From positions 186,001 through 250,000 of the forward strand of contig NZ_JBAJEX010000002.1 in the NCBI RefSeq assembly GCF_039822265.1: a stretch of 64,000 nucleotides of DNA, written 5' to 3'. Below the pieces are notes generated by a model that did not search any database, was not told the origin of the DNA, and saw only the letters and a program-made list of their open reading frames with translations. Positions 809 through 20,293 of this stretch are shown here, piece after piece; the stretch's first letter is position 1; every line of letters begins with the position of its first letter. The stretch comes from Thiobacter sp. AK1. Its GTDB lineage: Bacteria > Pseudomonadota > Gammaproteobacteria > Burkholderiales > Thiobacteraceae. The translations under genes and the position numbers were made by a program.

Positions 809-1791
809 CCCAGCATCTCCCGCAAGCCGTCGCCGAGCCCTATCTGCGCGCGAAAACCCAACTCGGCCTCGATGCGCGCCGGAGAATAACAAGCCGAGCC
901 GAGAAGGCGATCCACCAGCGCGCGGCCCCGTCGCCCCATCAAGCCGACAAGGCGAATCGCCCCTTGGGGCACCGCCCACTGGATTGGCGGCAGTCCAAGC
1001 GCCCCGCGCATGGCATCGTAAATCTCGCGCGTGGAATAGGGCCGCGGATCGGCGACGATGTAGGTGCGTCCATTGGCGCGGGGATCCTCTGCCACGCGCC
1101 GTGCAGCGGCGACCACATCGTCCACATGCACGAGGGACCGTCGGTTGCCGGTCTCGGGCAGCGGCGGAAACCAGCCTTTTTTGACGGCCTGCGCCATCTT
1201 CCACAGATTGCCCCGATTGCCGCGGCCATAGACGACCGCCAGGCGCAGACTCACCAAGTGCATGCCCCAGCGTGTGCCCGCCTCGAACACCGCGGCTTCC
1301 GCCGCACGCTTGGCGCGGCCATAGGACGTCGCCGGCTCGCCGGGCCAGTCCTCATCCGGGCATTCGTCACCCGGCTCGGCCATCGCCTTGACGCTGGAAA
1401 AAAACACGAAGCGCCGCACACCTGCACGCCCCGCCGCTTCGAGCAAGTTTTTCGTGCCCTCGACATTGACGCGCCACAAAAGCGCTTCATCCCTCGTATC
1501 CGCATCGGCAAGACCGGCGCAATGGAACACCGTTTCGATGCCCTCGCAGGCGCGGGCTAGAGACGCGGGATCGAGCAAATCGCCCACCACGACCTCCCCT
1601 CTCCCTGTGGGAGAGGGGTTAGGGGTGAGGGCACTCCCCTCTCTCACCGGGAGAGGGGTCGGGGGTGAGGGGACTCCCCTCTCCCTCTGGGAGAGGGGGC
1701 GGGGGTGAGGGCTGCGCACCAACGCCCGGTCGCCCTCCCGCATCAAGCGGCGGCCGATGAAGCCGGTGGCGCCGGTGATGAGTGCTTTCAC
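805..1791 (-). CDS. NAD-dependent epimerase/dehydratase (extended SDR) with in-frame repeat insert
   Basis: This is an extended short-chain dehydrogenase/reductase that probably modifies a nucleotide sugar or lipid-linked sugar for the adjacent initiating transferase. The Rossmann motif GATGFIG lies at residues 6-12 and the catalytic YxxxK pair is Tyr157/Lys161. A GTG start at 1791 is preferred: GGGGAGG lies just upstream and the Rossmann strand begins at once. A more upstream GTG at 1830 would add 13 non-conserved residues. Residues 27-66 (about 1594-1713) are encoded by three copies of the 41-bp palindromic repeat, inserted between the second and third strands of the fold with the frame kept. 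WbpV-like or GalE-like activity is possible. Whether the enzyme still works with the insert is unknown. Confidence 0.85.
   Translation of the reverse strand: MKALITGATGFIGRRLMREGDRALVRSPHPRPLSQRERGVPSPPTPLPVREGSALTPNPSPTGRGEVVVGDLLDPASLARACEGIETVFHCAGLADADTRDEALLWRVNVEGTKNLLEAAGRAGVRRFVFFSSVKAMAEPGDECPDEDWPGEPATSYGRAKRAAEAAVFEAGTRWGMHLVSLRLAVVYGRGNRGNLWKMAQAVKKGWFPPLPETGNRRSLVHVDDVVAAARRVAEDPRANGRTYIVADPRPYSTREIYDAMRGALGLPPIQWAVPQGAIRLVGLMGRRGRALVDRLLGSACYSPARIEAELGFRAQIGLGDGLREMLG
1594..1713. repeat. Three tandem 41-bp palindromic repeats inside the epimerase gene
   Basis: Each unit has a hairpin core of the form CCCTCTCCC-N4-GGGAGAGGG followed by a GGGGTGAGGG box on the plus strand. Three units of about 41 bp total about 120 bp, which preserves the reading frame. 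The encoded peptide cycles through three proline/arginine-rich versions because 41 is not a multiple of three. The same family occurs in asnB, fcl, gmd and around the toxin-antitoxin genes. Confidence 0.9.
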
Positions 1792-5353: not shown

Positions 5354-5520
5354 GCTAAAAGGCGGCCCGGCAATTTGTCAATTCGCCTTACAATTACCCA
5401 GCTCGCTCATCGGCAGCGGGTCCCTGGCTACCAGAGTGAAGGTCGGTCACAGGTCAGGCAATCGCCGACCATCGAGCCCGAAGCGGAATCCACGCCGGCG
5501 TGGCCAAAGGGCAAGGGGTT

Positions 5521-5955
5521 TCCTGGATTCCGGGGCGCGGCAAGCCGCGCCCGGAATGACGGCTGGGCGTCATTCCCGCACGGTTTCGTCATTCCGCGAA
5601 AGCGGGAATCCAGGCCAGCGTGGTCATAGCTATCGCCGCTTCCTGGATTCCGGGTCGCGGCAAGCCGCGCCCGGAATGACGGCTGGGCGTCGTTGCCTCA
5701 CGGTTTCGTCATTCCCGCGAAAGCGGGAATCCAGGCCGGCGTGGTCATAGCTATCGCCGCTTCCTGGAGTCCGGCTCGCGGCAAGCCGCGCCCGGAATGA
5801 CGGTTGGGGCGTCGTTGCCGCACGGTTTCGTCATTCCCGCGAAAGCGGGAATCCAGGCGGTGGTCATCATAGCCAGCGCCGCTTGCTGGAGTCCGGCTCG
5901 CGGCAAGCCGCGTCCGGAATGACGGTTGGGGCGTCGTTGCCGCACCCTTTCGTCA
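5521..5955. repeat. Tandem array of about 120-bp units (3.6 copies) downstream of asnB
   Basis: The gap 5354-5955 holds no gene. From 5521 a unit recurs with starts at about 5521, 5641, 5762 and 5884 (periods 120-122 bp). Each unit contains two hairpins: one around CGCGGCAAGCCGCG, within the matched arms TCCTGGATTCCGG and CCGGAATGACGG, and one formed by ATTCCCGCGAAAGCGGGAAT. The last unit is truncated and runs into the asnB stop codon. The region 5354-5520 shows nothing further. Spacers are not unique, so this is not a CRISPR array. Confidence 0.85.
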
Positions 5956-8760
5956 TTAGACATGCCGATGAGCAAACCACGCCTCCCACATCAACACATC
6001 CCACAGGTAATACGCCCAGTTACGCCGGCCCGAGAGGTGTTCCGCCCATTTTTCGCGGATGGGCGCAGGATGCAGAAAGCCTTCGCGTTTGAGCCGGTCC
6101 TCCGACAACAAATCCTCCGCCCACTCCCGCAGCGGCCCGCGCAGCCACTGGTCGAGCGGCACGCCGAAGCCCATTTTGGGCCGTTCCATCAATTCTCGGG
6201 GGACGTATCGATAGAGCACCTGCCTAAGCAGCCATTTGGACTGACTATTGCGGATTTTCAGGTGCAAGGGCAGCCGCCAGGAAAATTCCACCACGCGGTG
6301 ATCCAGAAGCGGCACGCGGGTTTCCAGGCTCACCCCCATGGCGGCGCGGTCCACCTTGACCAGAATGTCATCGGGCAGGTAGGTGAGCTGGTCGAGGAAC
6401 ATCATCACCTCTTCGAACGAACGCCGCCCATCGGCGAGGCTTGCCGGCCACTCGTCCCGGCGCGAGAGAATCGTCTCCGGCTCGGTGGCACCGATCACCA
6501 GTTCCTCGGCCGGATGCTTCCAGTGAGAGACAAGGTAACGGTACACCGCTTCCAGGGAATCGAGCCCCACCAGCTCGGCGAGCTTATGCATCTTGTCGCC
6601 AGCGAGTTTTACCCGCAGGGCGGGCGGGAGCACGGGTTTGAGCACGGCAAACAGTCGGCTCCAGGCCTGGGGCGAGGGCAGCGTGAGCGCCGCTGCCAGC
6701 GCGCGCCGCAGCGGCACGGGCAATAGACCGAGCCGGCGCCACAAAGCCCGCGTCCAAAAATACCGGTTGTAGCCTCCGAAGAGCTCATCGCCCCCGTCGC
6801 CGGAGAGGCTCACCGTCACATGTTCACGCGCCAGTTGCGCGACGAGAAAGGTGGGAATCTGCGACGAATCGGCGAAGGGCTCGTCATAGAGCGCCGGCAG
6901 CCGGGGAATGACATCCAACGCCTGCTTCGGTGTGACGTAGAGCTCGGTGTGGTCGGTCCCCAGATGGCGCGCCACCGCATGGGCGTGCTCGGCTTCGTTG
7001 TAGTCGCCCTCGTGAAAGCCGATGGTGAAGGTCTTCACCGGCCGGCTCGATTGCGCCTGCATGAGGGCGACCACGGTGGTGGAATCGATCCCGCCGGAAA
7101 GAAAGGCACCCAGCGGCACATCCGCCACCATCTGCCCGGCAATCGCCTCACGCAACAGCCGGTCCAGTTCCGCTATGGCCTCGGCATCACTGCCGGCAAA
7201 CGGCGCATCGAAACCCGCTTCCACCGCATCCGCCACGCGCCAGTAGGCGCGCACCTCCCCTCTCCCGCTTGCGGGAGAGGGGCCGGGGGTGAGGGCGCAC
7301 CCCTCTCCCCATGGGAGAGGGGCCGGGGGTGAGGGCCACTCCCCTCTCCCCCTGGGAGAGGGGCGGGGGGTGAGGGCAACACCCCTCTCCCTCCGGGAGA
7401 GGGGCTGGGGGTGAGGGCCACTCCCCTCTCCCTCCGGGAGAGGGGCGGGGGGTGAGGGCCGCCCGCCAAACTGCACGTAACACCCTGGCGGCAGCTTCCA
7501 GATATTGCGATAAATACTCCACGGCGCGGGGACATAGTTATGGCGCAAGAAGAGCGCCAACGCGCCGCGGTCGATTTCGTTATCGAAGCCCGGAAACGCA
7601 CGCAGCGCCTTCAGTTCCGAGCCGAACACCAGCGCCCCGCGCAGCCAGCCGTAATAAAGCGGCTTCTCGCCCAGGCGGTCGCGCGCGAGGGTGAGCGTGC
7701 GCGTTTCACGGTCCCACAGGGCGATGGCGAACATGCCCACGGCACGCTGGAGGGTCCGCTCGATCCCCCACGCCTCGAAACAGGCGAGCAATGTCTCGGT
7801 ATCCGAATGTCCGCGCCACGCCACGCCCCTCTCCCCCTGGGAGAGGGGTCGGGGGTGAGGGCCACTCCCCTCTCCCCATGGGAGAGGGGCCGGGGGTGAG
7901 GGCGCCACCACCTCCCAAATCCTCTCCAACACCGCCTCGGTCTGCGCGAGCACCTCATGGTTCCAAAAGCGCAGTACCCGTATGCCCTGCTCAGCTAGGT
8001 ACGCATCCCGCCGTGCATCGCGTTCAGCCTGGGCCACATGCTGCCCCCCATCCAATTCAATGGCCAGATTGAGTTCCGCGCAGTAGAAGTCGAGCACATA
8101 GGGTGGCACGGGGTGCTGGCGGCGAAACTTCCGGCCTGCCAGGCGACGATCACGAAGCAGGAACCACATGAGACGCTCCGCATCGGTCGCGTCGCGCCGA
8201 AGCTGACGGGCGAACCCGCGGAGTTCCTTCGGAACAGGGTTGCCCTCACCCCTAGCCCCTCTCCCGCTTGCGGGAGAGGGGAAACCTGGATGCCCCTCTC
8301 CCTCCGGGAGAGGGGCTGGGGGTGAGGGCCACTCCCCTCGCCCACTGGGAGAGGGGACGGGGGTGAGGGCCACGCCCCTCTCCCCCTGGGAGAGGGGTCG
8401 GGGGTGAGGGCCACTCCCCTCTCCCCATGGGAGAGGGGCCGGGGGTGAGGGCCACTCCCCTCTCCCCCTGGGAGAGGGGCTGGGGGTGAGGGCTCGCCTC
8501 AGCTCGAGATGGTTATAAATCTCGCCATTGAAGGCGATCACATACCGACCGCTCCCTGAGACCATCGGCTGATGCCCGGCGGGGGAAAGATCGAGGATCG
8601 CCAGCCGCCGGTGAGCGAGCGCCAAACCGACTGCTTCGTCCACCCACACCCCGGCGTCATCCGGGCCGCGGTGGACGAGCGTGTCCGCCATCCGGCGTGC
8701 AACAACGTCGAGCGGCTCGGTCAGCCGTTCAGGGGTCCAAAAACCGGTGAGGCCACACAT
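5956..8760 (-). CDS. asnB: Asparagine synthetase-type amidotransferase carrying two in-frame insertions
   Basis: This is a glutamine-hydrolysing asparagine synthetase family protein. In polysaccharide clusters these enzymes usually amidate a sugar acid or other carboxylate. The catalytic Cys2 of the class II glutaminase domain is intact (MCGLTGFW), with RGPDD and FNGEIYNH motifs, and the ATP-pyrophosphatase loop LSGGIDST lies at residues 554-561. The protein has 934 residues against about 600-640 for the family. The excess is two insertions: residues about 90-314 (repeats plus a DUF559 nuclease domain) inside the glutaminase domain, and about 433-502 (five repeats) before the synthetase domain. 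No stop or frameshift interrupts the frame. The 5' end is present in two further truncated copies upstream (9453-9887 and 10627-10872). Activity is uncertain. Confidence 0.85.
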   Translation of the reverse strand: MCGLTGFWTPERLTEPLDVVARRMADTLVHRGPDDAGVWVDEAVGLALAHRRLAILDLSPAGHQPMVSGSGRYVIAFNGEIYNHLELRRALTPSPSPRGRGEWPSPPAPLPWGEGSGPHPRPLSQGERGVALTPVPSPSGRGEWPSPPAPLPEGEGHPGFPSPASGRGARGEGNPVPKELRGFARQLRRDATDAERLMWFLLRDRRLAGRKFRRQHPVPPYVLDFYCAELNLAIELDGGQHVAQAERDARRDAYLAEQGIRVLRFWNHEVLAQTEAVLERIWEVVAPSPPAPLPWGEGSGPHPRPLSQGERGVAWRGHSDTETLLACFEAWGIERTLQRAVGMFAIALWDRETRTLTLARDRLGEKPLYYGWLRGALVFGSELKALRAFPGFDNEIDRGALALFLRHNYVPAPWSIYRNIWKLPPGCYVQFGGRPSPPAPLPEGEGSGPHPQPLSRRERGVALTPRPSPRGRGEWPSPPAPLPWGEGCALTPGPSPASGRGEVRAYWRVADAVEAGFDAPFAGSDAEAIAELDRLLREAIAGQMVADVPLGAFLSGGIDSTTVVALMQAQSSRPVKTFTIGFHEGDYNEAEHAHAVARHLGTDHTELYVTPKQALDVIPRLPALYDEPFADSSQIPTFLVAQLAREHVTVSLSGDGGDELFGGYNRYFWTRALWRRLGLLPVPLRRALAAALTLPSPQAWSRLFAVLKPVLPPALRVKLAGDKMHKLAELVGLDSLEAVYRYLVSHWKHPAEELVIGATEPETILSRRDEWPASLADGRRSFEEVMMFLDQLTYLPDDILVKVDRAAMGVSLETRVPLLDHRVVEFSWRLPLHLKIRNSQSKWLLRQVLYRYVPRELMERPKMGFGVPLDQWLRGPLREWAEDLLSEDRLKREGFLHPAPIREKWAEHLSGRRNWAYYLWDVLMWEAWFAHRHV
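7255..7464. repeat. Five 41-bp repeat units inserted in asnB (second insertion)
   Basis: Five tandem copies of the palindromic repeat, all with the GGGTGAGGG box to the right on the plus strand, encode residues about 433-502 of the amidotransferase. The total of about 210 bp is a multiple of three, so the downstream synthetase domain stays in frame. The insertion separates PPGCYVQF from RAYWRVAD, which are adjacent in normal family members (inferred from knowledge of the family). Confidence 0.9.
7819..8493. repeat. First asnB insertion: repeats flanking a DUF559 domain
   Basis: Two repeat units at about 7826-7901 and six at about 8243-8493 bracket a nuclease-domain coding segment. Seven units have the GGGTGAGGG box to their right. 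The unit directly right of the nuclease segment (about 8224-8282) is inverted, so the CCCTCACCCC boxes face inward from both sides of the nuclease segment. The insert encodes residues about 90-314 and replaces what should be a short loop between NGEIYNHLELR and WRGHSDTETLL. Confidence 0.85.
7903..8238 (-). other. DUF559 (Vsr-like endonuclease) domain embedded in the asnB reading frame
   Basis: Residues about 175-286 of the asnB product match the DUF559 family, a small Vsr-like/PD-(D/E)xK putative nuclease. Visible hallmarks are a LRRDATDAERLMWFLLRDRR helix, a KFRRQHPV segment, then YVLDFYC, LAIELDGGQH and GIRVLRFWNHEV, in the family order. No in-frame ATG directly precedes it, so it appears to be expressed only as part of the amidotransferase polypeptide unless an alternative start is used. 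It is flanked by inverted copies of the 41-bp repeat. The family assignment is firm; the activity and any role in spreading the repeats are inference. Confidence 0.85.
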
Positions 8761-8772
8761 GATGCTTCAGGC

Positions 8773-9159
8773 TCAGATGAGCCGCACCAGTTCTGAATAC
8801 GGCGCCAGTGCCGCGTCAGCGGTGACGAGTTGCGCGGGCAGCAGCAAGGTCTGAGCAATCAGCAAACGGTCGAATGGATCGCGGTGGTGTGGCGCCAAAT
8901 GGGCGACCTTGGCGCAATGCGCGGCGCTGATGGCGAGTTCGAGAAACCCGGTGTCTTTCGCGGCTTTCGCAATCTCTTCTGGCCCGTACGGAAGCTGGAT
9001 TTTCCCCAGCGCGTTCTTAATGGCGATCTCCCAAATGCTCACCGCGCTGAAATAAACGGTGTTCTCCGGCGATTCGAGCTGGGTGACCACATCGTTGGGC
9101 AAGCGCTGAGGCGCATCCAACGCCCAAAGCAGGATGTGCGTGTCCAGCAGAACGACCAC
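8773..9159 (-). CDS. VapC-like PIN-domain toxin
   Basis: This 128-residue PIN-domain protein is a likely type II toxin, an RNase that cleaves tRNA or other RNA. The acidic residues expected of the metal site are visible: Asp6 (LLDTHILLW), Glu44 (SIWEIAIK), Asp94/Asp97 (HRDPFDRLLIAQ) and Asp115. The GTG start at 9159 directly follows the stop of the antitoxin gene, so the pair is translationally linked. It lies 12 bp upstream of the intact asnB copy and therefore separates that gene from its original upstream neighbour. Confidence 0.9.
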   Translation of the reverse strand: MVVLLDTHILLWALDAPQRLPNDVVTQLESPENTVYFSAVSIWEIAIKNALGKIQLPYGPEEIAKAAKDTGFLELAISAAHCAKVAHLAPHHRDPFDRLLIAQTLLLPAQLVTADAALAPYSELVRLI

Positions 9160-9452: not shown

Positions 9453-9887
9453 TTAGCGGGAAGTTCCGGCAAGGGGGAGCGCATTGCACAAGGGGGAAGA
9501 ATAAGGGCTGCCCTCGCGGGGGAAACCGGGAAGGGCCAAGGGTGATCGCCCTCTCCCTTCGAGACAGGGGCGGGGGAGGAGGCGACGGCCACTCCCCTCT
9601 CCCCCTGGGAAAGCGCCCGGGGGTGACGGCCACTCCCCTCTCCCCCTGGGAGAGGGGACGGGGGTGAGGGCCACTCCCCTCGCCCCCTGGGAGAGGGGCT
9701 CGGGGTGAGGGCCACTCCCCTCGCCCACTGGGAGAGGGGTTGGGGGTGAGGGCTCTCCTCTTTCGGCCACCCACACTCCAGCATCATCCGGGCCTCGGTG
9801 GACGAGCGTGTCCGCCATCCGGCGCGCGACCACGTCGAGCGGCTCGGTCAGCCGTTCAGGAGTCCAAAAACCGGTCAGTCCGCACAC
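9453..9887 (-). pseudogene. Truncated copy of the asnB 5' end (copy B) running into repeats
   Basis: Positions about 9766-9887 are a near-identical copy of codons 1-41 of the intact asnB (roughly 90% identity by eye; start codon here GTG). After the WVAE codons the sequence passes directly into five 41-bp repeats. The open frame ends at 9453 with no glutaminase or synthetase domain, so it cannot be a functional amidotransferase. It lies between the mntA-like gene and the phd-vapC cassette. The stretch 9453-9550 has no recognisable content. Confidence 0.85.
9551..9757. repeat. Five tandem 41-bp palindromic repeats following asnB copy B
   Basis: The CCACTCCCCT start of the unit recurs at about 9589, 9630, 9671 and 9712, an exact 41-bp period. 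A more degenerate unit precedes these on the left. All units share orientation with the array in the second asnB insertion. Units at the left end carry more substitutions, consistent with older copies. Confidence 0.9.
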
Positions 9888-10207
9888 CGATTCGCTCCAC
9901 GCTCATAAAATACCTTCCCCACGCGTGCAATGTGCGCACGAAGATCATCGTGGTCGATCATGTCGAACAGGCACAGATCCACCTGATACGGAATCGAAGA
10001 CTCATCCAAACGGGCAGCCAGTCTGCCGAGGGCATCTAGATCGAGGCCCTTGCCAAAAAGCACGAGGTCGATATCGGAGCCGGGCCGCTGTGTGCCCTTC
10101 GCACGGGAGCCAAAAATAACTGCCCTCTCGACCGCAGGTTCGGTAGCCAGAATCCGGCGAATAACCTCGATCGTCTCGCGCGAAAGACCAAACAAGCCCG
10201 CAGTCAT
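9875..10207 (-). CDS. MNT-domain nucleotidyltransferase (MntA-like antitoxin)
   Basis: This 110-residue minimal nucleotidyltransferase has the signature GSRAKGTQRPGSDIDLVL, giving the GS motif (residues 33-34) and paired Asp45/Asp47, plus a third Asp near 77. In HepT-MntA type VII toxin-antitoxin systems such proteins inactivate the HEPN toxin by adding AMP to it. It overlaps the upstream HEPN gene by 4 bp. Its final codons and TGA stop lie inside asnB copy B (TGTGCGGACTGA), so the C-terminal three residues are borrowed from the repeated asnB start and the native end may have been lost. Confidence 0.9.
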   Translation of the reverse strand: MTAGLFGLSRETIEVIRRILATEPAVERAVIFGSRAKGTQRPGSDIDLVLFGKGLDLDALGRLAARLDESSIPYQVDLCLFDMIDHDDLRAHIARVGKVFYERGANRCAD

Positions 10208-10614
10208 AGGTCCCGTTCCAGGCGCTTTTGCAATGCCAGGAAGGCTGGATAGTAGCGTTCGACAACCCCTGAAACCACGATTTCTGCGATCTTGAGGTTA
10301 TAGGTATGGCTGGAGAGGTGGCGTTTCTCGATCATATCCATCCACGCCTCGCCATCCTCGATCAGGCCGCGCTTGAAGGCCTCGCGTACAGTGCTGCGGG
10401 AACCCACCAAACCCTGGATGCCCTCCATCTCCAGATAATCTTTCAAAACGTTCCAGCCGAGCTCATGCGTGAATTCAAAGGCCTGGACCAGCCCCTGCTG
10501 TTCCAGATCCGACAAGGGGCGCGTCTTGCGCAACTCCACGGCAGCCGCGAGTTGCTGCAGAGCTCTTTGGAAATTCTCGAAGCGTTGCTTCCAGCGCACG
10601 TCAGGGTTCAGCAT
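10204..10614 (-). CDS. HEPN-domain toxin (HepT-like, HI0074 family)
   Basis: This 136-residue all-helical HEPN protein belongs to the nucleotidyltransferase substrate-binding family. The RX4-6H ribonuclease motif is RHLSSH (Arg98/His103), followed by a tyrosine (HTYN) of the kind that is AMPylated in characterised HepT proteins. The pairing with an MNT gene in an ATGA-type overlap is the standard type VII toxin-antitoxin arrangement. The cassette is flanked by asnB copies C (upstream) and B (downstream). Confidence 0.9.
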   Translation of the reverse strand: MLNPDVRWKQRFENFQRALQQLAAAVELRKTRPLSDLEQQGLVQAFEFTHELGWNVLKDYLEMEGIQGLVGSRSTVREAFKRGLIEDGEAWMDMIEKRHLSSHTYNLKIAEIVVSGVVERYYPAFLALQKRLERDL

Positions 10615-10626
10615 GAAATTTCCCCT

Positions 10627-10872
10627 TTAGGTTGAAACAACGCGAAGGGTTTCCTTGTCCACCCTCTCCCCTTGGGAGAGCGGCCGGGGGTGACGGCCAC
10701 TCCCCTCTCCCCCTGGGAGAGGGGTTGGGGGTGAGGGCTCTCCTCTTTCGTCCACCCACACCCCGGCGTCATCCGGGCCTCGGTGGACCAGCGGGTCCCC
10801 CATCCGGCGCGCAGCAGCGTCGAGCGGTTCGGTCAGCCGTTCAGGGGTCCAGAAACCAGTCAGACCGCACAT
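10627..10872 (-). pseudogene. Truncated copy of the asnB 5' end (copy C) adjoining the native upstream gene
   Basis: The ATG at 10872 and the following 42 codons copy the intact asnB start with about 90% identity by eye, then enter two 41-bp repeats at exactly the same codon as copy B. The frame ends at 10627 as an 81-residue ORF just before hepT. Copy C starts 2 bp after the stop of the glycosyltransferase gene, so it probably keeps the original 5' context of asnB, now separated from the rest of the gene by both toxin-antitoxin cassettes. Confidence 0.85.
10663..10741. repeat. Two 41-bp palindromic repeats following asnB copy C
   Basis: Two tandem units of the same family and orientation as those after copy B. 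The junction with the asnB fragment (TCTCCTCTTTCG before the copied codons) is shared with copy B, which argues that copies B and C descend from one rearranged structure. Confidence 0.85.
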
Positions 10873-17467: not shown

Positions 17468-18012
17468 GAGGCTTTCCTTTTCTGCAAGATGGCGCGGCGC
17501 CCGTTTTCGAACCGCAGCTCGGCGGGCAACAAGGTTTTTACGACACGCGCGGGCACACCAGCGACCATGACGTCTTCCGGTACATCCTTCGTCACCACCG
17601 CCCCCGCCGCCACGATGCTGCGGCTGCCGATCCTAACACCGGGAAGGATCATGGCGCCCGTTCCAATCCAGACATCGTCACCAATTTCCACAGTCCGGTT
17701 AATGCCGACCGCCGCCACCGGTAGCACCGCCGGGTCGTGGGTGGGGGTAATGATGCGCGTGAAAGCTGCGATGGCGCAGCGCTCGCCGATGATGATATGT
17801 CCTTGCGACGAAGCTTGAAGAAAACATCCTGGCCCTATGGAGGTATTCGCACCGATATGCACATGCTGCGGGAAAGAGATCTTGCAGCGTCCATAAATCC
17901 CTGCGCCCGGACCGAGATGTCCCAACCTGCAACGTAAATACGGCATGTATAAACGCAAGAACGCTTCGCTGAGCAGCGCACGTGCATACGAGAACAGTTT
18001 TGCCGCCGTCAT
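17464..18012 (-). CDS. Hexapeptide-repeat O-acyltransferase
   Basis: This 182-residue left-handed beta-helix acyltransferase, probably a sugar O-acetyltransferase, shows hexapeptide-type repeats ([31 protein letters not shown]) and the terminal [24 protein letters not shown] signature. The ATG at 18012 overlaps the fcl stop as ATGA, which settles the start against a longer frame. It would acetylate a sugar of the glycan or its nucleotide precursor. Confidence 0.88.
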
Positions 18013-19160
18013 CCTGTGAGACCCTCCAAGGCTTGTTCGAGGCCTTGCAGCAACGGAACGGTCGGCTGCCACCCAAGTGAAAATAGGCGCGACACATCCA
18101 ACACCTTCCTCGGCGTGCCATCGGGCTTCGTGGCGTCGAAGACGATCTCGCCCTTGTAGCCCACCACTTGGGCGATGGTTTCGGCGAGCTCACGAATGGT
18201 GAGGTCGTGGCCGACGCCGATGTTGATGAGCGGGGGGTGTTGAGCCCTCACCCCCGACCCCTCTCCCGGAGGGAGAGGGGATGCGCCCTCACCCCCGGCC
18301 CCTCTCCCGGTGGGAGAGGGGTTGAGAAGCGCGTCGAATTGGGCATCTGGCAGGTTCATGAGAAAGAGGCAGGCATCGGCCAGGTCGTCGCTGTACAGGA
18401 ATTCTCGGCGCGGGGTGCCCGTGCCCCAGAGGACGACGCGCGGCGGCTGGCCTTCGCAACAGGTGGCGTAGAGGTCGCGCTTGATGTCCGCCGGGATGGG
18501 GCCGTGGTGGCGTTCGTCCGCCTCGATGGCGGCCCAGTTTTTTTCCATGGCCAGTTTGGCCAGGTGGAACTTGCGCAGCATCGCGGGGATGACGTGGGAG
18601 GTGGCAAGGTCGTAGTTGTCGCCGGGGCCGTAGAGGTTGGTGGGCATGACGGCGAGAAAGCGCGTGCCGTACTGGCGGTTGTAGGCCCAGCACATTTCGA
18701 TGCCGGCGATCTTGGCCACCGCATAGGGGCGATTGGTGGGCTCGAGCGGGCCGGTGAGGAGGTATTCTTCCTTGATGGGCTGGGGGCAGTCGCGGGGGTA
18801 GATGCAGGAGGAGCCGAGAAAAAGCAGGCGCTTGACCCCCGCCCGCCAGGCCTCGTGGATGACGTTGGTCTGAATCGCCAGGTTCTGGTGGATGAACTCT
18901 GCCGGGTAGGTGTCGTTGGCGAGGATGCCGCCCACCTTGGCGGCAGCGAGGAACACGTAGTCCGGGCGCTCGGCTTCGAAGAAGGCGCGCACGGCGGCCT
19001 GGTCGGTGAGGTCGAGCTCGGCGTGGCTGCGAGTGAGCAGGCTTGTGTAGCCTTGCGCGGCGAGTCGGCGCATAAGGGCGGAGCCGACAAGGCCGCGGTG
19101 GCCGGCCACATAAATTCTGGCATCAAGGGGCATGCAGGGTTCGTGCTGCACGACCTTCAC
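18009..19160 (-). CDS. fcl: GDP-L-fucose synthase with in-frame repeat insert
   Basis: This epimerase-reductase converts GDP-4-keto-6-deoxymannose to GDP-L-fucose. Motifs visible are VAGHRGLVG (NADP binding), the GSSCIYP serine motif and the YAVAK catalytic Tyr/Lys pair. A GTG start at 19160 overlaps the gmd stop as GTGA; ATG 19133 is an alternative nine codons downstream. The protein is some 30 residues longer than usual because two 41-bp repeats are inserted (about 18240-18326) between FDALL and [13 protein letters not shown]. These repeats lie in the opposite orientation to those of asnB, yet stay open. Confidence 0.92.
18240..18326. repeat. Two 41-bp repeats inside fcl
   Basis: Two units with the CCCTCACCCCC box to the left on the plus strand, inverted relative to the asnB and epimerase copies. 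They encode a Pro/Gly/Arg-rich loop of about 28 residues without a stop codon. Confidence 0.9.
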
Positions 19161-20293
19161 TCCAGGCGGTTCGACACAGCGTGTCCATGAGCACGCATGA
19201 GCTGCTCTCGCTGGGCTTCTTTCAGGTCGGCCTGCGCCATTTCTTTGACCAGTTGGTCGAATGGCACACGTGGCCGCCAACCCAGCCTCTCCCGCGCCTT
19301 GCTGGCATCGCCCAACAGGGTTTCGACCTCGGCGGGGCGGAAGTAGCGAGGATCGACCGCGACGATGGGCTGACCCTCACCCCCAGCCCCTCTCCCAGAG
19401 GGAGGAGGGGGATTGAGCCAGTAGGCCTTTTCTTCGCGCCCGCTGCCGCGCCATTCCAGTTCCATGCCCAGCTCGTGGGCCACCGCGTTGACGAAGTCCC
19501 GCACGCTGTATTGGCTGCCGGTGGCGATGACGAAATCGTCCGGCTCGGGTTGCTGTAGCATCAACCACATGGCTTCGACGTAGTCGCGCGCATGGCCCCA
19601 GTCGCGCTTGGCATCCAGGTTGCCAAGATAGAGGCAGTCCTGAAGGCCCAGCTTGATGCGGGCTAAGCCCCGGGTGATCTTACGGGTGACGAAGGTCTCA
19701 CCGCGGATGGGGCTTTCGTGATTGAACAGGATGCCGTTGCAGGCATAGAGCCCATAGGCCTCGCGATAGTTGATGGTGATCCAGTAGGCGTAGAGCTTGG
19801 CGGCCGCGTAGGGACTGCGGGGATAGAAGGGCGTGGTTTCTTTCTGGGGAATTTCGCGCACCTTGCCGAACAGCTCGGAAGTGGAGGCTTGATAAAAGCG
19901 CGTTTTGTCTTTGAGGCCCAGGGTGCGGATGGCTTCCAGGATGCGCAGGGTGCCCAGGGCATCGGCGTTGGCGGTGTATTCCGGTTCCTCGAAGGAGACG
20001 GCCACATGGCTTTGCGCGGCGAGGTTGTAGATTTCGTCCGGCTGCACTTTCTCGATGATGTGCATGAGGCTGGAGGAATCGGTCATGTCACCGTGGTGCA
20101 GGAAGAAGCGCACGCCGGGCTCGTGGGGGTCGCGGTAGAGGTGGTCGATGCGCTGGGTGTTGAAGAGGCTGGTGCGGCGCTTGATGCCATGCACTTCATA
20201 GCCCTTGCCGAGCAGAAACTCGGCCAGATAGGCGCCGTCCTGGCCGGTGATGCCCGTGATGAGGGCTTTTTTCAGGGAGGCTCGCTCGTTCAT
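19157..20293 (-). CDS. gmd: GDP-mannose 4,6-dehydratase with small in-frame repeat insert
   Basis: This enzyme converts GDP-D-mannose to GDP-4-keto-6-deoxymannose, the first step to GDP-fucose. It shows the [19 protein letters not shown] nucleotide-binding motif, the STSELFG substrate motif and the [11 protein letters not shown]yr/Lys pair, followed by [17 protein letters not shown]. Length is 378 residues, slightly above typical, because one repeat unit (about 19373-19412) replaces a variable loop before [14 protein letters not shown]. It is coupled to fcl by a GTGA overlap. The main body is well conserved, so activity is plausible. Confidence 0.95.
19373..19412. repeat. Single 41-bp repeat unit inside gmd
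   Basis: One unit, oriented as in fcl and opposite to asnB, encodes [13 protein letters not shown] in a surface loop. The hairpin arm on the right carries a 1-bp expansion (GGGAGGAGGGGG), possibly frame-compensating. Confidence 0.8.

What the first reader, a model, noticed from the sequence alone, without database searches (positions are those of the whole stretch)
7819..8493. DUF559 nuclease domain flanked by inverted 41-bp repeats, sitting in frame inside an amidotransferase
Seen: a complete DUF559 domain (about 7903-8238) lies within the asnB frame, with repeat units on both sides whose CCCTCACCCC boxes face inward. Known: REP sequences in other bacteria are mobilised by RAYT proteins whose genes are flanked by inverted REPs. 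Inference: the DUF559 nuclease plus inverted repeats may be the autonomous form of this repeat family, with the many nuclease-free copies in the window as its non-autonomous offspring, and its spread may favour frame-preserving insertion into genes.
Basis: partly seen in the sequence, partly recalled or inferred. Interest (0 to 1): 0.85.

Follow-up and report, generated by a model that had tools for sequence, protein, structure and literature searches.

The report
Nuclease gene paired with triplex repeats
A small nuclease gene lying in frame inside a bacterial metabolic gene belongs to a family that, across many bacteria, is mostly bounded by and varies together with a scattered type of DNA repeat, reported in E. 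coli to form a triple helix in the test tube, and it likely spreads those repeats, for which a 2015 study found no mobility gene.

Summary
A DUF559 domain (7906-8223, minus strand) lies in frame inside asnB (5956-8760), and the repeat units next to it face inward. The six closest asnB relatives lack the insertion. DUF559 genes have inverted-repeat flanks in 58 of 81 testable hits, and in 50 of 78 in an independent named set, against about 1% of controls. In a phylum sample 66 of 108 genomes with DUF559 carry the repeat, against 18 of 290 without; the association holds within families (odds ratio 17). Three results change the picture. (1) The unit matches the E. coli BoxC/PIT/TM motif, a published intrastrand-triplex repeat for which no mobility gene was found. 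(2) Repeat type follows nuclease subfamily, and across types the box tends to be the mirror image of the hairpin arm, as a triplex needs. (3) Of 13 in-frame cases with a recognisable host gene, this one included, 10 are restriction or modification genes (one doubtful). Recognition, cutting and mobilisation by DUF559 are inferred: I found no clean transposition event, and the one multi-copy case (G032) cannot be credited to DUF559. No listing in my ten paper searches ties DUF559 to these repeats.

The parts
5956..8760 (-). asnB-type amidotransferase / asparagine synthase frame (934 aa), host of both insertions
   Evidence: relatives without insertions
7822..8493 (.). Insertion 1 in asnB (residues about 91-313): repeat units + DUF559 + repeat units, between LELRR and AWRGHSD
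7906..8223 (-). DUF559 (PF04480) Vsr-like nuclease domain; D53, E64, D66, G67, H70 and D77 among the invariant columns of a 41-sequence alignment
7827..7861 (+). triplex-type unit (hairpin + mirror box)
7868..7902 (+). triplex-type unit next to DUF559, box facing inward
8243..8280 (-). triplex-type unit on the other side of DUF559, box facing inward
8294..8492 (+). five further tandem units (period 41) in the orientation of the left units
7258..7458 (+). Insertion 2 in asnB: five tandem units without nuclease, no stop in any frame on the asnB strand
9636..9752 (+). three tandem units upstream of asnB
10703..10737 (+). solo full unit upstream of asnB
1597..1711 (+). two full units (1597-1631, 1677-1711)
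18245..18320 (-). two units in the C-terminal part of an epimerase frame (18009-19280 -)

Best explanation
The DUF559 nuclease gene in asnB and the hairpin repeats beside it are one copy of a widespread pair, a Vsr-like nuclease gene mostly bounded by inward-facing repeats of the BoxC/PIT intrastrand-triplex type, in which the nuclease likely recognises, and would cut and spread, its own type of repeat. Shown here: the flanking arrangement, its orientation, the co-occurrence within families, the match of repeat type to nuclease subfamily, and the mirror box that a triple helix needs. Inferred: when the strand is single (replication, repair) the unit would fold into hairpin plus third strand, DUF559 would nick at it, and repair would copy or join the unit elsewhere. 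Copies with the gene would be the autonomous form; solo units and inverted pairs would be non-autonomous derivatives. Tandem units would then arise by ordinary recombination. Insertions inside genes would persist where the frame stays open, which is easy here because one strand of the arrays has no stop codon.
For: Flanks: inverted-repeat score >=16 between 250-bp left and right flanks in 58 of 81 DUF559 hits, against 1.0% of 1620 random and 1.25% of 160 ORF controls. Independent named set: 50 of 78, against 0.4% of 1560 random and 4 of 321 ORF controls, with Chloroflexota, Nitrospirota and CPR records among the positives. Unfiltered hairpin scan of 318 flanks: 190 stems >=8, 161 with a pure pyrimidine first arm reading outward and 0 with a purine one; controls 28, 3 and 0 of 644. 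Co-occurrence: 48 of 60 genomes with canonical DUF559 have the palindrome, 43 of the other 214; with the published-type motif 66 of 108 against 18 of 290, p=6e-30; within 17 families MH odds ratio 17, p=1.5e-13. Specificity: subfamily A tracks CTCTCCC (40 of 45 vs 51 of 229) and not CCCCCTTT; subfamily B tracks CCCCCTTT (9 of 12 vs 23 of 262) and not CTCTCCC. Arm similarity rises with protein identity, Mantel r=0.40, 0 of 2000 permutations. Mirror box: mirror beats direct 96 to 9 with 53 ties in 158 asymmetric units; 0 of 300 arm permutations reach the observed score. At arm T positions of 132 anchored units the box has T 129, A 117, C 14, G 12. In-frame hosts. Fold: 3hrl, I-Bth0305I (3r3p), weakly Vsr.
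Against: No transposition event was seen. Among the 83 class hits translated, near-identical copies at separate places occur only in G032 (G174 has a tandem pair); the G032 copies have apparent 9-bp duplications, but their outer 18-nt end also begins other repeats in that genome that lack DUF559, and I identified no transposase there, so what moved them is open. The recA-recX unit is polymorphic in E. coli but has no clean empty site or duplication. 18 of 84 motif-bearing genomes have no DUF559; a loose re-search of 12 repeat-rich genomes without DUF559 gave weak hits in 3 and none in 9. 42 of 108 DUF559 genomes lack the A-type motif, including 13 of 13 in family f220, whose flanks I did not read. 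23 of 81 and 28 of 78 loci fall below the flank threshold. With one query, DUF559 is rare in plasmid (39 of 72,556) and phage (3 of 50,697) records. Holder et al. saw no triplex signal in double-stranded DNA or by in vivo footprint (PMC4666352).
Confidence: 0.64

Rival explanations
1. Caretaker nuclease: DUF559 is a Vsr-like structure-specific repair enzyme that clears triplex hairpins. The repeats spread by other means, and genomes rich in them keep the gene because it makes them tolerable; the flanking units regulate or insulate it.
For: Vsr-like fold. A genome has one to a few DUF559 matches (1-4 in the class sample; up to 8 in the phylum sample), mostly divergent from each other where translated, and the gene is rare in plasmid and phage records. 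Repeats persist in some genomes without the gene.
Against: Does not explain why the gene itself is bounded by inward-facing units, why repeat type matches the nuclease subfamily even between two DUF559 genes of one genome, e.g. G091 and G131, or why the gene lies in frame inside unrelated genes.
Confidence: 0.2
2. Homing-type element: DUF559 cuts a conserved gene site, like the Vsr-fold homing endonuclease I-Bth0305I, and the gene with its repeats is copied in by repair; dispersed units are by-products.
For: Fold match to 3r3p. Three HsdS copies carry DUF559 in the same inter-domain region, two HsdM share a site, and three HsdM in three genomes carry a solo unit in the same loop (my reading by eye of the frames).
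Against: Solo units at those sites carry no gene; only 15 of the 83 class hits lie in frames of 250 aa or more; linkers are also the tolerated places, so selection alone can give shared sites.
Confidence: 0.08
3. Passenger: DUF559 hitchhikes on other mobile elements or on rearrangements between repeats, with no functional link to them.
For: The G032 copies share their outer ends with DUF559-free repeats and have apparent 9-bp duplications. asnB 5' fragments are duplicated next to repeat arrays in the window.
Against: Flank enrichment in two sets, within-family co-occurrence and the subfamily-to-type double dissociation.
Confidence: 0.06

Closest known systems
BoxC / PIT element / TM_ECO intrastrand-triplex repeats (Holder et al. 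2015, PMC4666352; seen: outline, abstract, passages, sections 15, 18 and 20 part 1)
   Same: Same consensus: hairpin of pyrimidine and purine arms plus mirror box; dispersed; sometimes inverted pairs; unstable loci in E. coli.
   Different: There always intergenic in E. [quoted passage not shown] Here also in frame inside genes, and tied to a nuclease gene and to subfamily-specific types.
REPtrons: RAYT/TnpA-REP genes flanked by inverted REPs, REPINs (PMC3733652 passages; PMC8266576 outline and abstract; PMC3116915 search listing only)
   Same: Gene bounded by inverted copies of a dispersed palindrome; solo and paired copies elsewhere; enzyme-repeat co-variation.
   Different: The enzyme is a PD-(D/E)XK, Vsr-like protein and not a HUH tyrosine transposase; units lack the GTAG tag and carry a mirror box.
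YcjD/DUF559 family, PD-(D/E)XK superfamily (PMC1189080 passages); PDB 3hrl
   Same: Same protein family and fold.
   Different: No repeat association in the three passages seen.
Vsr-fold homing endonuclease I-Bth0305I (PDB 3r3p)
   Same: Nuclease fold; a mobile gene of this fold (PDB names it a mobile intron protein / homing endonuclease).
   Different: DUF559 genes are bounded by triplex-type repeats.
Rickettsia palindromic elements (PMC3733652 passages; in-frame insertion recalled)
   Same: Palindromic repeats found in frame inside protein genes.
   Different: RPEs end in CGTC; no nuclease partner is known to me (recalled).

Membership tests
BoxC/PIT/TM triplex repeat | Consensus CCCTCNCCC N3-6 GGGNGAGGG N3 GGGNGAGGG | tested here: met
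   21 matches in the window with the second loop widened to 3-5; 0 in 100 shuffles
BoxC/PIT/TM triplex repeat | Third-strand box mirrors the hairpin arm | tested here: met
   relatives; window
BoxC/PIT/TM triplex repeat | Triplex forms in isolated single strand | not testable with these tools
   CD and NMR reported for the E. coli unit in PMC4666352
BoxC/PIT/TM triplex repeat | Always intergenic (as reported for E. coli MG1655) | tested here: not met
   in frame in asnB and hsdM of this genome
DUF559/YcjD PD-(D/E)XK nuclease | Pfam PF04480 above cut-off | tested here: met
   128.8 bits vs 20.6
DUF559/YcjD PD-(D/E)XK nuclease | Vsr-like fold with conserved acidic/His residues | tested here: met
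   model pLDDT 90; 3hrl, 3r3p, weakly 1vsr; invariant D53 E64 D66 H70 D77
DUF559/YcjD PD-(D/E)XK nuclease | Nuclease activity | not testable with these tools
   needs a bench assay
REPtron (RAYT + REP) | Gene flanked by inverted copies of a dispersed palindrome | tested here: met
REPtron (RAYT + REP) | HUH tyrosine transposase (RAYT) between the repeats | tested here: not met
   no such domain in the asnB frame
REPtron (RAYT + REP) | GTAG tag at the palindrome | tested here: not met
   absent from the 21 listed units
Insertion sequence | Known transposase domain in the element | tested here: not met
   the only inserted domain is DUF559
Insertion sequence | Target-site duplication | tested here: inconclusive
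   asnB relatives too distant to show it; G032 duplications not attributable
Homing endonuclease element | Insertion at its own cleavage site in a conserved gene | tested here: inconclusive
   shared sites in HsdS and HsdM by reading; no cleavage data
Rickettsia palindromic element | CGTC-terminated palindrome | tested here: not met
   absent from the 21 listed units

The most novel reading that the evidence does not exclude
DUF559 is the long-missing mobility enzyme of intrastrand-triplex repeats: a transposase-like, Vsr-fold nuclease that recognises a folded single-stranded triple helix by shape and type, and spreads it through bacterial genomes in many phyla, even in frame into genes and preferentially into restriction-modification genes. 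It would be a class of mobile DNA separate from IS, REPtron and homing systems.
Probability: 0.45. Interest if true: 0.95.

Novelty: new variant of a known kind. Interest (0 to 1): 0.87.

Why it matters
BoxC/PIT/TM repeats have been known since the 1990s, form triple helices in vitro and mark unstable loci, but the 2015 study found no gene that could move them. The data here name one candidate gene family, present in E. coli as ycjD (3333 of 5426 genomes hold at least 80% of the ycjD-region query), and predict which repeat each nuclease should recognise. That turns the origin of these repeats into a bench question and offers a function for a large uncharacterised nuclease family. If cutting is triplex-dependent, it would be a natural enzyme specific for a DNA triple helix.

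Tried and rejected
G032 as proof of transposition: three DUF559 copies (two 98% identical over 534 nt, the third about 89-91%) with apparent 9-bp duplications. Not used as proof, because the outer 18-nt end occurs at other G032 places without DUF559 (26 places with up to 3 mismatches, six of them the ends of the three copies; reversed-pattern control 2), some with similar sequence following by eye. The 75-nt end search found the six ends of the three copies plus six core-only matches. In five of those other loci the nearby long frames do not read as a transposase by eye, so an IS is not identified either.

Clean empty sites in E. coli: queries around units at ycjD, gcvP-ygfF, recA-recX, yhfS-frlR, trpS, yihS and lptG. 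Present/absent states exist, but at the three loci I aligned (recA-recX, yhfS-frlR, gcvP-ygfF) the spacer differs more widely than the unit. The trpS, yihS and lptG loci were searched but not aligned.

G-quadruplex reading of the G-rich strand: possible for the CTCTCCC type (four G runs) but not for the CCCCCTTT type, which has two; not pursued. Watson-Crick pairing of box and arm: the 'direct' alternative lost 9 to 96 in asymmetric units.

Rows dropped: one search listed 100 matches; 83 (in 81 loci) were fetched and tested, 17 weak or fragment rows (50.4 bits or less) were left out, and 2 of the 83 were untestable at contig ends. One search kept the best 80 of 194 relatives; L117 and L170 were left out as duplicates of G009 and G032. 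In one search a regex put L001 and L071 under 'other'; their genomes have 27 and 49 palindromes, so the A-type association is slightly understated. The mirror scan looked only for hairpins with a pyrimidine first arm; orientation was tested without that filter. The left and right units of one locus are not independent; 77 distinct arm/box pairs (T 70, A 63, C 14, G 12) are the conservative count. Paper search CCCTCTCCC: the 30 listed of 430 papers gave nothing of use.
Full report
1. What is in the window. The 934-aa frame 5956-8760 (minus) is an asparagine-synthase-type amidotransferase. A DUF559 domain lies at residues 180-285, window 7906-8223, splitting the GATase domain into two matched stretches. 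Of 15 other AsnB-type matches found in 21 relatives, the six closest (63-69% identity over the matched part, 650-661 aa; same family or order) were aligned. Against them the frame carries two insertions: about residues 91-313 (units + DUF559 + units, between LELRR and AWRGHSD) and about 434-501 (five units, no nuclease); all six lack both. The units beside DUF559 face inward (7868-7902 +, 8243-8280 -), but five more follow on the right in the left-hand orientation. The window holds 21 full units against 0 in 100 shuffles. The genome has one DUF559 match and 27 exact palindromes, 18 of them in the window. On the asnB strand the three nuclease-free arrays tested have no stop in any frame, so an array can sit in a gene in any phase that keeps the total length in frame.

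2. The repeat is a known orphan. The unit CCCTCTCCC-loop-GGGAGAGGG-loop-GGGTGAGGG fits the E. coli BoxC / PIT / TM_ECO consensus printed in Holder et al. 2015 (PMC4666352; seen: outline, abstract, passages, sections 15, 18 and 20 part 1), with the second loop 3-5 nt instead of 3. That paper reports by CD and NMR that the isolated strand forms a purine-motif triplex, finds 23 copies in MG1655, always intergenic, five times as inverted pairs, and links them with instability. [quoted passage not shown] The strings nuclease, DUF, ycjD and fabI do not occur in its held main text; its supplements were not seen. In the E. coli record NZ_OL790696.1 I found 18 exact units, one of them just downstream of the DUF559 gene ycjD beside fabI.

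3. DUF559 genes are bounded by such repeats. Of 83 DUF559 hits taken from the class sample of 274 genomes (69 with a hit), 81 were testable; 58 have an inverted-repeat score of at least 16 between the two 250-bp flanks, against 16 of 1620 random same-locus pairs and 2 of 160 ORF controls. The same test with the same threshold on an independent named set gave 50 of 78, against 6 of 1560 random and 4 of 321 ORF controls. Positives there include Alpha-, Beta- and Gammaproteobacteria, Desulfobacterota-type, Chloroflexota, Nitrospirota and CPR records. A hairpin scan without composition filter (318 flanks of 120 nt) found 190 stems of 8 or more; in 161 the first arm reading outward from DUF559 is pure pyrimidine (90% or more), in none pure purine; controls gave 28, 3 and 0 of 644.

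4. Repeat and gene occur together. In the class sample 48 of 60 genomes with a canonical DUF559 (best hit 60 bits or more) have the CCTCTCCC palindrome (median 8 copies), against 43 of the other 214 (median 0), p=2e-17. In a phylum sample of 398 genomes (383 not in the class sample), with the published consensus slightly widened, it is 66 of 108 against 18 of 290, p=6e-30. Within the 17 families that hold both states the Mantel-Haenszel odds ratio is 17, p=1.5e-13; for example f208 8 of 11 vs 3 of 63, f161 7 of 7 vs 2 of 9, f192 4 of 4 vs 2 of 13. Two small families go the other way (f170 0 of 3 vs 1 of 2, f245 0 of 1 vs 1 of 1) and three are flat (f235, f193, and f220 with 0 of 13 vs 0 of 3). 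Exceptions are real: 18 motif-bearing genomes have no DUF559, the largest with 129, 72 and 51 copies. In 12 repeat-rich genomes without DUF559 from the class sample (chosen for either repeat type), a loose search gave weak hits in 3, two of them over the family cut-off, and none in 9.

5. Type specificity. A second palindrome, CCCCCTTT...AAAGGGGG, was counted in the same 274 genomes. Subfamily A (F[RKH]RQ) goes with CTCTCCC (40 of 45 vs 51 of 229) and not with CCCCCTTT (A-only genomes 6 of 43 vs 26 of 231). Subfamily B (F[YNT]RQ[KR]P) goes with CCCCCTTT (9 of 12 vs 23 of 262) and not with CTCTCCC (B-only genomes 4 of 10 vs 87 of 264). Over 135 loci, counting pairs from different genomes, arm similarity rises from 0.68 to 0.89 with protein identity (Mantel r=0.40, 0 of 2000 permutations). 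Two DUF559 genes in one genome can each have their own type (G091: CCCTCTCCC and CCCCCCTTT; G131 likewise).

6. Mirror box. Pyrimidine-arm hairpins were found at 142 of 159 loci (230 units). For the 209 with enough sequence, the box next to the hairpin matches the mirror image of the arm (mean score 0.84) better than a direct copy (0.70). In 158 asymmetric arms mirror wins 96, direct 9, tie 53; shuffling arms among units gives 0.61 (sd 0.01), 0 of 300 reaching the observed value. Anchored on C positions only (132 of 153 asymmetric units), the box at arm-T positions is T 129, A 117, C 14, G 12, although C makes up 37% of the surrounding sequence. On the purine strand this is G over G:C and A or T over A:T, the purine-motif triplet code. 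So the triplex rule published for the E. coli type extends by covariation to the other DUF559-linked types. This is sequence evidence; no triplex was measured here.

7. In-frame insertions. Fifteen class-set hits lie in stop-free frames of 250 aa or more. Thirteen have a recognisable host (BioF and SelD are named from the frame and the aminotransferase and AIRS domains): AsnB, BioF and SelD (DUF559 at the C-terminal end), and ten restriction or modification genes (HsdM 3, HsdS 3, HsdR 1, N6_N4 methylases 2, a DUF1156 protein with a methylase match below cut-off 1). One HsdM frame (L062, first copy) ends shortly after DUF559, so that HsdM is probably broken. This genome's own hsdM carries a solo unit in frame in the same loop as HsdM of G081 and G136 (position read by eye).

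8. The enzyme. A 41-sequence alignment has invariant D53, E64, D66, G67, H70, D77 among others. The AlphaFold model (pLDDT 90) matches 3hrl (DUF559), 3r3p (homing endonuclease I-Bth0305I) and, weakly, Vsr 1vsr. A 2005 study already used YcjD as a PD-(D/E)XK member related to Vsr (PMC1189080, passages).

9. How it most likely works. Shown: gene and repeat form a cognate pair with fixed geometry. Inferred: the folded unit is the recognition signal, DUF559 cuts it, and repair spreads it. The design resembles REPtrons (PMC3733652 passages; PMC8266576 abstract) but with an unrelated enzyme fold and no GTAG tag, so it works like a REPtron without being one. Some E. coli copies are two units facing each other without a gene (L200, L201, L208 by reading), as expected of a deleted form.

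10. What speaks against mobilisation by DUF559. No clean insertion was found. The three G032 copies have apparent 9-bp duplications, but their ends begin other DUF559-free repeats in that genome and no transposase was identified, so their mover is open. The E. coli recA-recX spacer has and lacks the unit (8 of 25 sampled rows with, 16 without, 1 other) but differs over a wider stretch. DUF559 is rare in plasmid and phage records.

11. Prior work. Ten searches of the open PMC library, among them DUF559 (14 papers), ycjD (8), CCCTCTCCC (430, 30 listed), RAYT/REPIN (18, 15 listed) and intrastrand triplex (18), listed no title or abstract start that ties DUF559 to these repeats; I opened four papers. 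Subscription papers were not available, including Hoyne and Maher (known only through Holder et al.) and the BoxC originals (Bergler 1992 recalled).

Noticed in passing
window 8635-8775, 9762-9905, 10747-10872: The 5' end of asnB is duplicated twice upstream (87-90% identity), each copy next to a repeat array, with a PIN-domain gene (8773-9159) and a nucleotidyltransferase + substrate-binding pair (9875-10614) between the copies: repeat-linked segmental duplication around toxin-antitoxin-like genes.
   Followed up: partly
L058, L059, L062, L065, L070, L081, L084, L018, L089: In-frame DUF559 insertions fall in restriction or modification genes in 10 of 13 cases with a recognisable host (one, a DUF1156 protein, doubtful); three HsdS share the same inter-domain region by eye.
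   Followed up: partly
L099:1683-2447 (G000 C2 near 51070): A solo unit lies in frame in this genome's hsdM, in the same loop as in HsdM of G081 (L058) and G136 (L062).
   Followed up: partly
L012, L050, L051 (G032): Three DUF559 copies share long outer inverted ends and apparent 9-bp target duplications; the outermost 18 nt (CAAAGGTATCTACACAAG) also begins other repeats of that genome without DUF559; no transposase identified.
   Followed up: partly
window 5444-5928: Four tandem copies of a different 120-122-bp repeat with GCGAAAGCGGGAATCCAGG palindromes.
   Followed up: no
L259 (E. coli NADC 5570): This E. coli carries an efflux gene cluster between sapF and fabI where ycjD lies in others; whether such strains differ in BoxC copy number was not tested.
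   Followed up: no
window 18245-18320: Two units lie in the C-terminal part of an epimerase frame.
   Followed up: no
G177, G047, G421: Repeat-rich genomes without detectable DUF559: 172 CCCCCTTT palindromes in G177 and 59 CCTCTCCC palindromes in G047, 129 motif matches in G421; loss of the gene or another enzyme is possible.
   Followed up: partly
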